A stretch of 61,110 bases of DNA from Candidatus Tanganyikabacteria bacterium (lineage in GTDB: Bacteria > Cyanobacteriota > Sericytochromatia > S15B-MN24 > VGJW01): contig VGJY01000005.1 of the NCBI GenBank assembly GCA_016867235.1, positions 1 through 61,110 on the forward strand, written 5' to 3'. Both the position numbers and the translations under genes were made by a program. Every line of letters begins with the position of its first letter. The stretch's first letter is position 1. Below are positions 25,174-50,325 of the stretch, in pieces. The notes below the pieces were generated by a model, which had not been told where the DNA came from, did not search any database, and was given only the letters and a program-made list of their open reading frames with translations.

Positions 25174-25305
25174 ATGGAGACCATCATCGTCTTCGGGCTC
25201 GCGTTCGGCGGGCTCGCGCTCATCGCGGCCATCGCGGCCTACCGGTTGCTGCGTGGGCCCGAGGGAGTGTTCCGCTCCTCCGAACCGCCCGAGAGGCGGG
25301 ACTGA
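25174..25305 (+). CDS. 43-residue single-pass membrane protein
   Basis: Begins with ATG immediately after the TAG of the DUF2231 gene. One hydrophobic helix (IIVFGLAFGGLALIAAIAAY) is followed by a basic, Pro/Glu-rich cytoplasmic tail. The zero-gap arrangement suggests a small accessory subunit of the DUF2231 protein. Its last 67 nt overlap the end of the convergent TPR gene. Confidence 0.55.
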   Translation: METIIVFGLAFGGLALIAAIAAYRLLRGPEGVFRSSEPPERRD

Positions 25306-27092
25306 ATCGGCACCTCGTCGCGCATCTTGGCCACCTCGCGCCGGGCGCCCAGGCGTTCGAAGTAGGCCAGTGCGGCCTGCGCCCACTCCTCGCGCTTGCC
25401 GGGGCGGGCCAGTCGCGCCAGCACCGCCAGCGTCCGGGCGTGCTCCAGCGGCATGCCCGCCGGCCGCAGCGCCCGCTCGGACCGCAAGGCCAGTTCGAAG
25501 GCCTCCTCCTTGCGTCCGCTGCTTTCGGCCAGTTCGGCCAGGGCGCGGTCGACGACGCCCAGGTATGCCACGTGCCCTTGCGCGGTCGCGAGGTAGCGCG
25601 CCCGATCGTGCTCGCGCCGCGCTTCCGAGACGTTTCCCAGTAGCTGGAAGGCGCGGCCGCGGTAGAAATGCACCTCCGTGGCATAGAAAGACCGGCCGGT
25701 CCGCTCGATCAGGCGCAGGCATTGGTCGAGCGCTTCCAGCGCCTGGGCCGGGGCGTTGCGAGCCAGGTACACCGCCGCCAGGTTGCCCACGATGACCGTC
25801 TCGGCCTCGGAGTCACCCGTGCGTACCGCGATCTCGAGGCCTTCGAGCAAGCGCCGCTCCGCCTCGGCATCGTCGCCCCGGGCGAGCAGCAACTCGCCCA
25901 GGTTGCCCAGCACGATCGCGACGGCCCGGAACTCGCCCGTGCGCCGCGCCAGCGCCAGGCTGCGGAGGTAGTACTGCTGGGCGCCCTGCCAGCGCCCCAG
26001 GGACGCCGACAGGATGGCCAGGTTGTTGAGGCTGGTGGCGATGCCCGGCACGTCGCCGATGCGCTCGCGGATGGCCAGGGCGGCTTCGTGCTCCAGTTGC
26101 GCCAGCTCCCACTCGCCCAGGCGCTGGTAGCAGTTGCCTGCCAGACCATGAGCCGAGGCGGCGTCCACCGGCCGGCCCAGGGCCTCGAAACCGACCAGGG
26201 CACGCCTTGCCAGCGAGATCGCGTCCCGGTGATCGCCCTGGGCCTGCCGCGCGGCCGCCTCCGCCAGCAGGGCCTGCAAGGCCGTCTCCGGCGCGGCGGG
26301 GTCGGCGGCTTGCGCCGATGCGAAATCCGCCGCGCCGTGCGGGTCGGCCGATACCGCCGATCCGGCCGGGTCCGCGGCCTCCGCGGGAGGGGCGGCTTCC
26401 GGCTGTTCGGCGGGTTCGGCGCCGCCCAGGGCGATCGTCAGGATCTCCAGGTCGCCCCCGGGCCGGGCCGGAAAGGCCGGCAGCGGCCGGGTCGTGGCCA
26501 GCGCGAGCAGGAGGCGTACGGACTGGTCCTCGGCGGCCAGGCGGTGGACCATTCGGGAAAACCAGTCGAACGTAGCGGGCGCCGCCCACTGCATGCCGGC
26601 GAGGACCGCCACGACCGGGGCCTCATGGGCGGCCTCCACGAGCAGATCGCCCAGGGCGAGCGAAGCGCCCTGGCCGAGCCGCGCGGCATCCATCCCGTTC
26701 AGGTCGGGCACGCTGATCGGGAAGCCGAGCAGATGCTGAAAGTAGCCGGCCGCCGGGCGCGCCGCGAACACCGAGCCCGGCATGATGCCCGGCGCCACGC
26801 CGGCGGCGATGTCCGCGAGCCGGCCCGCCGCGTCGGTGCGGTCTCCCGGGAGTCCCATGACGGCCCCGGCCAGCCGCCCCAGGGCGGCGAAGGGGGTGTC
26901 GCGGTCGGTGGGCTCGCCCGGCACGAACCAGGCGGTCGCGCCCGCATCGCGCGCTCCCGAGAGGATGGCGGCGGCGGCCACATCCAGGCGATCCTGGGAT
27001 CCGATCAGCGCCACGATGCGCGGCTTGCCGCGCAGGGCGGCAATCAGCGCCCCGGACAGCCGGGGATCGAGACCGGGGTCTGGAGGGACCAC
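25239..27092 (-). CDS. TPR protein with degenerate STAND-type ATPase domain
   Basis: 617 residues. Residues 1-220 have the order of an AfsR/MalT-type NTPase (IVALIGSQD at the P-loop position, VVAVLAGMQWA at Walker B, LLLALATTRPLP sensor), but the P-loop lacks the GxxGxGKT signature, so nucleotide hydrolysis is doubtful. A low-complexity Ala/Pro linker (230-280) leads to about eight TPRs (290-590, e.g. GNCYQRLGEWELAQLEHEAA). It follows the winged-helix TPR gene by 9 nt. Together they look like one transcriptional activator split into two proteins. Confidence 0.75.
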   Translation of the reverse strand: MVPPDPGLDPRLSGALIAALRGKPRIVALIGSQDRLDVAAAAILSGARDAGATAWFVPGEPTDRDTPFAALGRLAGAVMGLPGDRTDAAGRLADIAAGVAPGIMPGSVFAARPAAGYFQHLLGFPISVPDLNGMDAARLGQGASLALGDLLVEAAHEAPVVAVLAGMQWAAPATFDWFSRMVHRLAAEDQSVRLLLALATTRPLPAFPARPGGDLEILTIALGGAEPAEQPEAAPPAEAADPAGSAVSADPHGAADFASAQAADPAAPETALQALLAEAAARQAQGDHRDAISLARRALVGFEALGRPVDAASAHGLAGNCYQRLGEWELAQLEHEAALAIRERIGDVPGIATSLNNLAILSASLGRWQGAQQYYLRSLALARRTGEFRAVAIVLGNLGELLLARGDDAEAERRLLEGLEIAVRTGDSEAETVIVGNLAAVYLARNAPAQALEALDQCLRLIERTGRSFYATEVHFYRGRAFQLLGNVSEARREHDRARYLATAQGHVAYLGVVDRALAELAESSGRKEEAFELALRSERALRPAGMPLEHARTLAVLARLARPGKREEWAQAALAYFERLGARREVAKMRDEVPIQSRLSGGSEERNTPSGPRSNR

Positions 27093-27101
27093 CCGGCTAT
27101 C

Positions 27102-28724
27102 TTAGCGGTTGGTACGGCCCTTCGCCGGGCTGGCGGCAGGCGCTTCCCGCAGGAACGTGATCACCGGACCGCTCGCATCCTTGGTCTCGACCGTGCGCTC
27201 CCAGGCCCACCGCAGCGCGCCGTGCTCGGTGACGATGAACGCGCCGCCGGCGTCCTGATCGAGCGGATCCAGGTAGCGCTTGAGGATGCCCAGCGTCTTG
27301 TAGAGCATGCTCATGTCGTTGCGGGGCCAGAGTTCGTCCATGATGCGTTCCTTGTGCAGCGCATCGCGGCGGCTGACCAGGCAGTGGAAGAGCATGCGGG
27401 CGCCGTTGCGGCCCCAGGCGATGGGGATGCGCACGCCGGCCATCATCAGGCGCAGATCCGCCAGGTCGTCGTCGTGGAAGACCACCTCGACCCGGCGGTG
27501 CTCTACCGGGAAGAGGAAATCGACCACCGGCCGGAGTTCCGCCCGCGCCTCGTCGGACAGCGCGAGCAGTTGCTCGAGCACGTCGCGGGCATCGCCGCTC
27601 TCGCGGACGTATTCCAGCAATTCGGCCGAGCCGGCGACCAGCTTGGCCAGCCGCGCCGCGTAGCGCAGTCGCCGGGTCTTGCTGCCGACCGCCACGAGCT
27701 TGAGGCAGGCGCGCACCTCGAGGAAGAGGAAGCCGTGGTCCTTGGCAAGCTCGGCGGCGATGACGAGGTGCTTCTCGTCCATCAGGAGCAGCGCCTCGGC
27801 CATTTCCTGCGGGTCGTTGGTGCAGGCGAGCGCCTCGGTGGCATAGGTCTCGGAGCCGTAGCACTTGGCCAGGCCGTAGTACCCGAAGTATGTGTACTCG
27901 GGGCCGCCCTGCTCGAGGCCGAAATCGACGGCCTTGCGGAAGAACGTCTCGGCGACGGCCCTCTCGCCGCGGGACAGGTGCCACAGACCGCGGCGGTACC
28001 AGCGCTGCGCCAGCGCGAGCGGCCGATCCTGCGCCGAGGTCTCGTCGCCGACGTGCCGCTCGACTTCGGGCCCGGGCAGGCTGGCCGCGACGTGCTCGGC
28101 GAGGATCAGGTAGTCCCACGCCATGTTCGTGGGCTGGCCGAACTCCCGCAGGCACTGCGCGGTGAGGCTCTCGGACTTGCGGAGATTGCCGAGCAGGTAG
28201 TGGATCTTCGCCAGGTTGGCACGGGCGTGCCACCGATAGTAAGCGCTCTTCTCGGGAGCCATTGGCAGGGGCTCGTCGAGGATCGCCTGGTAGTAGGAAA
28301 TCCCGTGCTTGGGATGCTTGTCGTAGTAGGTATGGAAGTCGCCCAGCAGCAGGAGCCGCAGCAGGCGAAGCTCGGGATCGGCCGGCCGGACCTCGCGGAT
28401 GGTGGGCAGCAGGCGTTCGAAGAACTTGATGTCGCGCCGCTTGTGCAGGAGATCGCGCCCGAGGGCCAGCACGACGCGGTGGTAATCGGCGACCTCTGGG
28501 CTCTCGCGGAAGAGATCCAGCGCGGTCTGGGAAGCTTCGTTGAAGAGCTCATGGCCCATCGTGCGCGAGAACAGGAGCATCCGCAGCACGAAGTACCAGG
28601 GATCTGCCTCCATCTCGGCGAGGCTCCGCGTGGTGACGAGCTGATCGAACAGGGCGACCACCTCGTCCTTGGAGTGCTCGGGATCGTCGAGCAACCTCAA
28701 GCAGGATTGTTTGAGCTCGGACAT
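27102..28724 (-). CDS. TPR regulator with C-terminal SARP/OmpR-like winged helix
   Basis: 540 residues. The first 420 are helical repeats of TPR type (HARANLAKIHYLLGNLRKSE, WYRRGLWHLSRGERAVAETF). Residues about 430-505 hold GVRIPIAWGRNGARMLFHCL, DALHKERIMDELWP and LYKTLGILKRYL, which match the DNA-binding domain of SARP/BTAD activators, with the unusual C-terminal placement. It should bind DNA and sense a ligand or peptide through its TPRs. A tiny signal-peptide gene ends 12 nt before its ATG and a second TPR gene starts 9 nt after its stop, so three genes form a unit. Confidence 0.78.
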   Translation of the reverse strand: MSELKQSCLRLLDDPEHSKDEVVALFDQLVTTRSLAEMEADPWYFVLRMLLFSRTMGHELFNEASQTALDLFRESPEVADYHRVVLALGRDLLHKRRDIKFFERLLPTIREVRPADPELRLLRLLLLGDFHTYYDKHPKHGISYYQAILDEPLPMAPEKSAYYRWHARANLAKIHYLLGNLRKSESLTAQCLREFGQPTNMAWDYLILAEHVAASLPGPEVERHVGDETSAQDRPLALAQRWYRRGLWHLSRGERAVAETFFRKAVDFGLEQGGPEYTYFGYYGLAKCYGSETYATEALACTNDPQEMAEALLLMDEKHLVIAAELAKDHGFLFLEVRACLKLVAVGSKTRRLRYAARLAKLVAGSAELLEYVRESGDARDVLEQLLALSDEARAELRPVVDFLFPVEHRRVEVVFHDDDLADLRLMMAGVRIPIAWGRNGARMLFHCLVSRRDALHKERIMDELWPRNDMSMLYKTLGILKRYLDPLDQDAGGAFIVTEHGALRWAWERTVETKDASGPVITFLREAPAASPAKGRTNR

Positions 28725-28736
28725 CCGGCCTGCCCC

Positions 28737-28895
28737 CTACGCCTTCACGATCGGCGCGCCGGGCCGGCCCTTGCCGCCTCCTGGCTCTGTCGGGTGGGTC
28801 GGTCCGCTAAAGAGCGTACCGTCGGGGCACGTGTTGACGACGGCCGAGACGACCGCCACCACGCTCACCAGCACCAGCAAAGCCCGCTTGATCAA
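28737..28895 (-). CDS. Small secreted peptide with GPTHPTEP motif
   Basis: 52 residues from a TTG at 28895, chosen because AGGTG lies 7 nt upstream; an in-frame GTG at 28928 would give 63. It starts with a positive residue and a long hydrophobic segment (LIKRALLVLVSVVAVVSAVV) typical of a signal peptide, followed by NTCPDGTLFSGPTHPTEPGG and a basic tail. The GPTHPxEP stretch recurs in the divergent 38-residue peptide at 29156. It is the first gene of an operon with the two TPR regulators, an arrangement seen in peptide-signalling loci. Confidence 0.6.
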   Translation of the reverse strand: MIKRALLVLVSVVAVVSAVVNTCPDGTLFSGPTHPTEPGGGKGRPGAPIVKA

Positions 28896-28933
28896 AGTCT
28901 TGCACCTATCAATAACAAGCACGCACACCCGTA

Positions 28934-28945
28934 GGTAGGCCTACC
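28934..28945. promoter_or_regulatory. 12-bp palindrome at the expected transcription start of the peptide operon
   Basis: GGTAGGCCTACC is fully self-complementary. It overlaps the -10 and start region of the minus-strand promoter described next, a position typical for a dimeric repressor site. Confidence 0.5.
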
Positions 28946-28971
28946 ATAGCACCTTCTTTAACAAGAGACAA
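28943..28971 (-). promoter_or_regulatory. Candidate sigma-70 promoter for the peptide-TPR operon
   Basis: On the minus strand TTGTCT (28971-28966) and TATGGT (28948-28943) are 17 nt apart, in an AT-rich patch that stands out in this GC-rich window. Each hexamer matches four of six consensus bases. Confidence 0.45.
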
Positions 28972-29155
28972 CAATACCTTAACTCCATCCTAACACTCCC
29001 GGGCTTTTGTAACGCAATCCTAAGCGCGGGGGCCTTGGGGGCACGGATCGCCCGCCATGCCGGTTTCGGGCGTTTGTTGCGAATCGTAAAGGCGCGGCCG
29101 CCCGGGAGCCCACATCGGCATTTCCGGGGCCGGGAGCCCGGTTCATACTCTAACC

Positions 29156-29272
29156 ATGCGCTCGAACGTCTTCGCTCTCCTGTTTGCCGCGATGGTCCTG
29201 GTCGGCCACGCCGCGCCGCCCGTCATCCTGGATGGCCCGACGCATCCGGTCGAGCCCAAGCCCCGGCGCTAG
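29156..29272 (+). CDS. 38-residue secreted peptide with GPTHPVEP motif
   Basis: Reads MRSNVFALLFAAMVLVGHAA, a compact signal peptide ending in a likely AxA cleavage site, then PPVILDGPTHPVEPKPRR. The GPTHPxEP core matches the peptide encoded at 28737-28895 on the other strand. There is no clear ribosome-binding site; CATACT six nt before the ATG could be a -10 element of a leaderless message. Its stop overlaps the stop of the convergent prephenate dehydratase gene by 3 bp. The predicted mature peptide would be about 18 residues. Confidence 0.55.
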   Translation: MRSNVFALLFAAMVLVGHAAPPVILDGPTHPVEPKPRR

Positions 29273-45491: not shown

Positions 45492-45794
45492 ATGCGAGCG
45501 CGTGTCCCTCTCGACACCGCCTGGCTGGCGGACTTCTGCGAGCGCTGGCGGATTTCGGAGCTCTCGTTGTTCGGCTCGGCGTTGCGAGACGATTTCGGGC
45601 CGGACAGCGACATCGACATCCTGGTCGAGTTCGAGGCGCACGCGGGCATCGGCTACTTCGCTCTCTCGCGCATCGAAGACGACCTGGCGGTTCACTTCGG
45701 AAGAAACGTGGACGTCGTCCCGAAGCGAGCGCTCAGGCCGCAAATTCGGGACGAGATACTCGCGAGCCGCGAGGTCGTGATTGCAGCGGCCTGA
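45492..45794 (+). CDS. mntA: MntA-type nucleotidyltransferase antitoxin
   Basis: 100 residues of the minimal nucleotidyltransferase fold with GS-x10-DxD (Gly28-Ser29, Asp40, Asp42), which is intact for catalysis. In characterised MntA/HepT systems this enzyme adds AMP to a tyrosine of HepT and so neutralises it. Its 3' end overlaps the start of hepT by 14 nt. A likely mobile defence or persistence module. Confidence 0.85.
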   Translation: MRARVPLDTAWLADFCERWRISELSLFGSALRDDFGPDSDIDILVEFEAHAGIGYFALSRIEDDLAVHFGRNVDVVPKRALRPQIRDEILASREVVIAAA

Positions 45795-46113
45795 TCACCT
45801 CGGCCTCGGGGACATTCGGGAAGCCATCGGGGCTATCGAGCGATTTCTTACCGGTGTAGACCTGTACCGCTTCCTCGAGTCGGAGATCATTCGGCACGCG
45901 GTGTTGCTGAACTTGATCGTGATCGGGGAAGCCGCTACCTCGCTATCGGATGCTTTCAAGGGCCACAATTCGCACATCTCGTGGCGCGAACCGATCCGGC
46001 TCAGAAACCGCCTGGTGCATGGCTACTTCGCCGTGGACTGGGAAATGGTTTGGGACACGGCCACACGGGACGTCCCGGCCTTGGCGAGGGACCTCGCCTC
46101 GGTTTCCTCCTGA
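45781..46113 (+). CDS. hepT: HepT-like ribonuclease toxin (DUF86)
   Basis: 110 residues, helical HEPN fold with the RX4HXY motif (Arg75, His80, Tyr82 in RNRLVHGY), which holds the RNase active site and the tyrosine that MntA modifies. It starts at TTG 45781 inside the end of mntA, the usual overlapping arrangement. The IS630 element begins immediately after its stop. Confidence 0.85.
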   Translation: MQRPDHLGLGDIREAIGAIERFLTGVDLYRFLESEIIRHAVLLNLIVIGEAATSLSDAFKGHNSHISWREPIRLRNRLVHGYFAVDWEMVWDTATRDVPALARDLASVSS

Positions 46114-46582: not shown

Positions 46583-47153
46583 CGAGCGCATCCAGATGCT
46601 TCGGGACGAGTTTGCAGCCTGGGTCGAAGGCGCGGATCCAGATAAGCTGGTGTTCCTGGACGAGGCCGGGTCGAACATCTCGATGACACGGGACTATGCG
46701 CGATCCGAAAGCGGGGAACGTGCGCACGATAAAGTTCCCCGAAACCGCGGCACCGTCACGTCTATGCTTGGGGCGCTCTCGCTCCAAGGGCTCACGGCCA
46801 TGATGACGGTGGCTGGCGGCACGAGCGCCGAGGTCTTCCAAGTTTTCGCCGAGCAGGTGCTGATACCCGCCCTTCCGCCAGGAGCCATCGTGGTCATGGA
46901 CAATGCGGGAGCCCACAAGGCCGCGCCAGTCCTTGACACCTTCGCAGCTGCAAACGTCGAGGTCCGCTTCCTGCCACCCTATAGCCCGGACCTCAACCCG
47001 ATCGAGCTGGCTTGGGCCAAGCTCAAGCGGCTCCTGAAGGAAGCGAAGGCGCGTACCCGCGATGCCTTGGACGCAGCCATAGGCGTAATCCTCGATGCCA
47101 TAACCCCTTTCGACGCAGGCGGCTGGTTCCGGCACTGCGGCTACCGGAGCTAA
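46557..47153 (+). CDS. IS630 transposase, C-terminal reading frame (OrfB)
   Basis: Continues the transposase in the next frame without a stop from the A8 run; an independent ATG lies at 46596. The DDE catalytic residues are in VFLDEAGSN, VVMDNAGAHKA and YSPDLNPIELAWAKLK, typical of the IS630/mariner superfamily. It is probably made as an OrfAB fusion through slippage on A8. All three acidic residues are present, so it may be active. Confidence 0.85.
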   Translation, partial: TLTASERDDERIQMLRDEFAAWVEGADPDKLVFLDEAGSNISMTRDYARSESGERAHDKVPRNRGTVTSMLGALSLQGLTAMMTVAGGTSAEVFQVFAEQVLIPALPPGAIVVMDNAGAHKAAPVLDTFAAANVEVRFLPPYSPDLNPIELAWAKLKRLLKEAKARTRDALDAAIGVILDAITPFDAGGWFRHCGYRS

Positions 47154-49746: not shown

Positions 49747-50325
49747 TCAGAAGCTCTTGAGGAGCAGATCCACGGGCGGGCGGTCGCTCGCGTCCTTGCC
49801 GATGTACGCGAAGCGGATCTTGCCGACCTTGTCGACGATGAAGGCCGCCGGCTTGGAGTACGTGTTGTTCTTCTCGCGGCCTCCGTACCGATCGATCGCC
49901 TTGTACTGCGGATCGGCCAGCAACGGGAACGGGAGGTGCAATTCGTCCTTGAAGCGCTTCTGGGTGATGGCGTCCTCGTAGCTGATGGCCACGGTCTCGC
50001 CGCGGGCCTGGATCTTCGGGTGGGCATCACGCAACTGCGTGAGATGATGCTGGCAATGCCCTCAGGTGTGGGTACGGAAGAAGACCAGCATGACCTCGCG
50101 GCCCCGGTGATCCGCGAGCCGGAAGGGCGCCCCGTCGGAGCTCTCCAGGGTGAAGTCCGGGGCGACGTCGCCCACCTGGGGCGGCCCCGTCCGGACGGGC
50201 GTGCTGGGTGAAGCGATCAACCATGTGATGCCGGCACCCACCAGGGCCACCAATCCGATCGCTACGGGCATGACTGGCGAGCGGCGCGGCTTGTCGGCTG
50301 GCGCCACGGAAGGGTCATTGGACAT
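49747..50325 (-). CDS. Peroxiredoxin-like protein, probable selenoprotein (UGA = Sec88)
   Basis: Two minus-strand reading frames, 50325-50065 and 50061-49747, are in the same frame and are separated by a single TGA at 50062-50064. Read through, they give a 192-residue protein: an N-terminal membrane anchor (AIGLVALVGAGITWLIA), then the thioredoxin-fold core GDVAPDFTLESSDG, VMLVFFRTHT-U-GHCQHHLTQL and the C-terminal RFKDELHLPFPLLADP and PAAFIVDKVGKIRF. The TGA occupies the peroxidatic cysteine position (FFR..UxxC), with Cys91 as the second residue. A hairpin follows directly. It probably reduces peroxides or disulfides outside the cytoplasmic membrane. Confidence 0.8.
50022..50061 (-). promoter_or_regulatory. 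SECIS-like hairpin downstream of the in-frame UGA
   Basis: On the minus strand, directly after UGA, an apical stem TCACGC/GCGTGA with an AGTT loop starts 19 nt downstream, and GGGCA pairs with TGCCC at the base. Loop distance (25 nt), a G within the first two loop bases and a 6-bp upper stem agree with bacterial SECIS rules. Confidence 0.65.

What the first reader, a model, noticed from the sequence alone, without database searches (positions are those of the whole stretch)
25239..29272. Peptide-plus-TPR-regulator locus resembling a cell-signalling system
A small signal-peptide gene lies 12 nt upstream of a TPR protein with a SARP-like winged helix, which is followed by a second TPR protein with a degenerate ATPase. 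A second tiny secreted peptide lies on the opposite strand, 261 nt from the first. The two peptides share GPTHPxEP. Small exported peptides beside TPR DNA-binding proteins are the pattern of RRNPP quorum sensing, but here with unrelated protein families.
Basis: partly seen in the sequence, partly recalled or inferred. Interest (0 to 1): 0.8.

Follow-up and report, generated by a model that had tools for sequence, protein, structure and literature searches.

The report
Two secreted peptides beside TPR regulator
A bacterial operon begins with a tiny secreted peptide followed by two repeat-containing regulatory proteins, and a second tiny peptide with the same eight-residue core lies opposite; it looks like a possible cell-signalling unit, but no related genome keeps the peptides, so the signalling idea cannot be confirmed by comparison.

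Summary
The anatomy is real. Pep1 (28737-28895, minus) ends 12 nt before a 540-aa TPR-like protein with a C-terminal AfsR/SARP-type winged helix; 9 nt later comes a 617-aa protein with a dead P-loop and TPRs. Pep2 (29156-29272, plus) is divergent. Both peptides have signal-like N-termini and gene-like codon use, and share GPTHPxEP. That motif occurs nowhere else in the 6.12-Mb genome, in none of 385 other genomes of the phylum, and (narrower pattern) in no small secreted ORF among 26 hits from about 85,000 species.

The RRNPP reading is neither confirmed nor refuted. The 540-aa protein has no full-length relative anywhere searched, so peptide-receptor conservation cannot be tested. Of 20 sibling loci here and about 17 in relatives, one has an adjacent secreted small ORF, an unrelated lipoprotein. 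RRNPP membership fails on receptor length and on HTH type and position.

Most likely this is a regulator pair, perhaps from a split AfsR/MalT-like protein, controlling its own operon and two related secreted peptides. Return of the peptides as ligands is possible but undemonstrated.

The parts
28737..28895 (-). pep1: 52-aa small secreted or membrane-anchored peptide, TTG start, MIKRALLVLVSVVAVVSAVVNTCPDGTLFSGPTHPTEPGGGKGRPGAPIVKA
   Evidence: Codon score positive only in this frame, GC3 0.87; Shine-Dalgarno-like AGGTG 7 nt upstream; hydrophobic N-terminus
29156..29272 (+). pep2: 38-aa small secreted peptide, MRSNVFALLFAAMVLVGHAAPPVILDGPTHPVEPKPRR
   Evidence: Codon score +19.9 only in this frame, GC3 0.89; no clear Shine-Dalgarno; TACTCT just before the ATG would allow a leaderless start (inference from sequence)
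28783..28805 (-). GPTHPTEP core of pep1
   Evidence: One of two matches in the whole genome, control 0
29234..29256 (+). GPTHPVEP core of pep2
   Evidence: One of two matches in the whole genome, control 0
27102..28724 (-). 540-aa orphan regulator: N-terminal helical-repeat (TPR-like) region, C-terminal AfsR/SARP-type winged helix (about residues 405-500)
   Evidence: Winged helix by BLAST, alignment A1 and AfsR hits; helical repeats from a single-sequence model, pLDDT 59
25239..27092 (-). 617-aa protein: degenerate P-loop (STAND/AAA_16-like) region plus TPRs; relatives are cyclase-AAA_16-TPR proteins
   Evidence: TPR_12 1.7e-22; 33 matches in own genome; domain make-up of relatives; P-loop alignment
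28980..29023 (-). Two direct repeats TTAGGANNNNGTTA, 30 bp apart, in the region between the two peptides; possible operator
   Evidence: modest significance, 10 of 300 shuffles as good; four other genomic copies beside unrelated genes

Best explanation
A locus-specific regulatory operon: secreted peptide pep1, a DNA-binding TPR-like protein (540 aa) and a TPR partner with a dead ATPase (617 aa), with a divergent paralogous peptide pep2. The winged helix of the 540-aa protein binds the divergent region and controls both transcripts; the 617-aa protein holds it in check or relays a signal through TPR contacts, as the NOD/TPR part of AfsR does within one chain. The peptides are co-regulated secreted products whose shared core GPTHPxEP binds a common partner. 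Shown: gene layout, coding character, shared core, winged helix, degenerate P-loop. Inferred: co-transcription, autoregulation, complex formation between the two TPR proteins, secretion, and what the peptides bind.
For: Gaps of 12 and 9 nt on one strand. Winged helix related to AfsR/PhoB types. In AfsR the TPR and NOD parts inhibit the DNA-binding part, and SARP sites are direct repeats over the -35 region (PMC10936776). Direct repeats lie in the divergent region. Only these two small secreted ORFs share the core.
Against: The direct repeats are only modestly significant, and no 11-bp SARP-like periodicity stands out (0.18 of shuffles as good). The 540-aa protein has no BTAD, and its winged helix is C-terminal rather than N-terminal as in AfsR. 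No sigma-70 promoter was found by consensus. No comparative support: the operon is known from one genome.
Confidence: 0.45

Rival explanations
1. RRNPP-like peptide signalling by convergence: the peptides are exported, trimmed around GPTHPxEP, re-imported by an oligopeptide permease and bound by the TPR groove of the 540- or 617-aa protein, switching DNA binding.
For: Small exported peptide directly beside a TPR-like DNA-binding protein; two peptides with one conserved core and diverged flanks; six oligopeptide-binding (SBP_bac_5) matches in the genome; the TPR-like model resembles peptide-binding TPRs, LGN first and Rap lower down.
Against: No such peptide beside the sibling regulators; no relatives to show peptide-receptor co-conservation; permease proteins are widespread (11 of 14 control genomes); the fold matches are generic from a low-confidence model; the core is internal in pep1, not at the C-terminus as usual for RRNPP pheromones.
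Confidence: 0.27
2. Pep1 is a leader peptide: its translation sets expression of the operon by coupling or attenuation, and its sequence is secondary.
For: 12-nt gap, with the likely ribosome-binding site of the 540-aa gene overlapping the pep1 stop codon.
Against: Does not explain a divergent second peptide with the same core; no Rfam match and no terminator-like hairpin.
Confidence: 0.1
3. One or both small ORFs are not functional genes, and the shared core is coincidence.
For: No homologue of either peptide anywhere searched; 5 of 5,222 neighbouring short-ORF pairs share a 7/8 window.
Against: Codon use matches real genes only in these frames; both lie outside other genes and are the strongest signal-like small ORFs in 61 kb; no other 7/8 pair was picked out as two signal-like ORFs outside genes.
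Confidence: 0.15

Closest known systems
RRNPP/RRNPPA peptide quorum-sensing systems (Rap, Rgg, NprR, PlcR, PrgX, AimR)
   Same: Small exported peptide gene directly beside a TPR-type protein with a DNA-binding domain
   Different: Winged helix is C-terminal and OmpR/SARP-type, not an N-terminal HTH; receptor 540 aa, outside 250-500; a second TPR/dead-ATPase protein; not Bacillota; no sequence relation found
AfsR and large SARP regulators
   Same: OmpR-type winged helix, nucleotide-binding and TPR parts; a profile with this winged helix hits AfsR
   Different: Parts divided over two proteins, winged helix after a TPR-like region, no BTAD in the 540-aa protein, P-loop lost, secreted peptides attached
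Class III cyclase-AAA_16-TPR proteins of the same genome and relatives
   Same: TPR region up to 41% identical to that of the 617-aa protein
   Different: 617-aa protein lacks zinc ribbon and cyclase domain and has a degenerate P-loop

Membership tests
RRNPP (five criteria of PMC10075063) | Propeptide 10-100 aa | tested here: met
   52 and 38 aa
RRNPP (five criteria of PMC10075063) | Propeptide secreted by Sec (SignalP) | tested here: inconclusive
   Basic then hydrophobic N-terminus by simple rule; SignalP not available
RRNPP (five criteria of PMC10075063) | Receptor of 250-500 aa | tested here: not met
   540 and 617 aa
RRNPP (five criteria of PMC10075063) | Receptor matches TPR profiles | tested here: inconclusive
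   Adjacent 540-aa protein only E 0.047, below cut-off; 617-aa protein clear but not adjacent to the peptide
RRNPP (five criteria of PMC10075063) | Receptor and propeptide are direct neighbours | tested here: met
   12 nt apart
RRNPP (five criteria of PMC10075063) | DNA-binding members carry an N-terminal HTH | tested here: not met
   C-terminal winged helix, residues about 405-500
RRNPP (five criteria of PMC10075063) | Re-imported peptide binds receptor TPRs | not testable with these tools
   SBP_bac_5 proteins exist in the genome, but binding needs experiment
SARP/AfsR | OmpR-type winged helix of SARP type | tested here: met
SARP/AfsR | BTAD following the winged helix | tested here: not met
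   No Pfam BTAD in the 540-aa protein, which ends about 40 residues after the winged helix; the paralogue on C130 has it

The most novel reading that the evidence does not exclude
A peptide-sensing system outside Bacillota, built from a split AfsR/STAND-type regulator, in which two divergently encoded secreted peptides with the core GPTHPxEP are returned as ligands of the TPR proteins.
Probability: 0.2. Interest if true: 0.8.

Novelty: new variant of a known kind. Interest (0 to 1): 0.4.

Why it matters
If the peptides are ligands, peptide sensing by TPR proteins would have arisen independently in another phylum from AfsR/STAND-type parts. If not, the locus is still an example of an orphan regulator pair with co-encoded small secreted proteins.

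Tried and rejected
Homologues of the 540-aa protein: relatives, genome contigs, viral contigs, plasmids, phages; none full length. Peptide homologues by tblastn and by motif: apparent short hits were arbitrary frames. Motif with two mismatches: not enriched over control. GPTHP alone: 8 places against 6 control; one follows the lipobox-like cysteine of a protein in a 441-aa frame on C58, judged chance. Direct repeat as a regulon motif: the other copies lie by unrelated genes. 11-bp SARP periodicity: not significant. Winged-helix fold from a single sequence: pLDDT 38, not used. Third-position differences between the two core codings were dropped as evidence of selection, because choosing the motif by amino acids makes the argument circular. 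Papers on peptide signalling of this kind in this lineage: none found. The comparison of neighbouring short ORFs by alignment score showed that a plain BLOSUM score is a poor test here.

Full report
Setting. The window is the whole of contig C5 of a 6.12-Mb, 514-contig genome with no other genome of its genus held.

Observation. Reading on the minus strand: pep1, 12 nt, a 540-aa ORF, 9 nt, a 617-aa ORF; pep2 diverges on the plus strand 260 nt from the pep1 start. Pep1 most likely starts at TTG 28895 behind AGGTG, giving MIKRALLVLVSVVAVVSAVVNTCPDGTLFSGPTHPTEPGGGKGRPGAPIVKA. Pep2 is MRSNVFALLFAAMVLVGHAAPPVILDGPTHPVEPKPRR. Only these frames have gene-like codon use. In 258 kb of this genome, few small ORFs outside genes have a signal-like start, and these two are among the strongest.

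Shared core. GPTHPxEP, written as degenerate DNA, occurs only in these two places in the genome with 0 control hits, and in none of 385 other genomes of the phylum. A narrower pattern over about 85,000 species genomes found 26 places, none in a small signal-like ORF. Chance estimates: 4 of 50,000 shuffles, or 5 of 5,222 neighbouring short-ORF pairs at 7/8 identity. A plain alignment score is not discriminating.

The 540-aa protein. No Pfam domain passes and no full-length relative was found in 58 relatives, GTDB contigs, viral contigs, plasmids or phages. Its C-terminus matches the winged helix of roughly 1,100-aa regulators; one such paralogue on C130 is AAA-TPR-winged helix-BTAD. A profile with this domain hits AfsR and PhoB-type structures. 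The N-terminal 400 residues model as paired helices (mean pLDDT of the whole model 59), resembling TPR solenoids generically.

The 617-aa protein. It has 33 matches in the genome, itself included, and its TPR region is up to 41% identical to others. Most relatives scanned are zinc ribbon-class III cyclase-AAA_16-TPR proteins. It lacks the cyclase and has lost the P-loop lysine/serine.

Comparative test. Of 20 sibling regulator loci in this genome, only C114 has a convincing small secreted ORF next to its regulator, a different lipoprotein. About 17 regulators in related genomes have none that qualifies; one 96-aa candidate beside a regulator on G001:C56 looks like a shadow ORF.

Divergent region. 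Two TTAGGANNNNGTTA repeats lie 30 bp apart. About 3% of shuffles of the region do as well. The pattern was derived from the copies, so the zero expectation is post hoc. Four more copies elsewhere are beside unrelated genes.

Mechanism. I favour a regulator pair controlling its own operon and two related secreted peptides, by analogy with AfsR, where TPR and NOD parts restrain the DNA-binding part (PMC10936776). Peptide return as ligand (RRNPP-like) is a live rival but has no comparative or physical evidence. Measured against published RRNPP criteria (PMC10075063), it meets peptide size and adjacency, fails receptor length and HTH position, and is unresolved on Sec prediction and TPR profile. 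It may still work like an RRNPP system without belonging to that family.

Noticed in passing
L120 6339-6539 (genome contig C114): A 66-aa lipoprotein-like small ORF (LPGC) lies about 10 nt after a 1317-aa zinc-ribbon/cyclase/AAA_16/TPR protein; the only sibling regulator with a convincing small secreted neighbour.
   Followed up: partly
Genome-wide, e.g. L107, L115, L119, L120: Large paralogous set of zinc ribbon-class III cyclase-AAA_16-TPR proteins (33 matches to the 617-aa protein).
   Followed up: partly
window 49747-50307 (-): A redoxin-like gene appears split into two ORFs, possibly a frameshift (recognised by eye).
   Followed up: no
window 45492-46113 (+): Two overlapping small genes that look like a MNT nucleotidyltransferase/HEPN toxin-antitoxin pair (recognised by eye).
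   Followed up: no
window 46596-47153 (+): IS630-like transposase fragment (recognised by eye).
   Followed up: no
window 28934-28945: Perfect 12-nt palindrome GGTAGGCCTACC upstream of pep1, possible operator.
   Followed up: no
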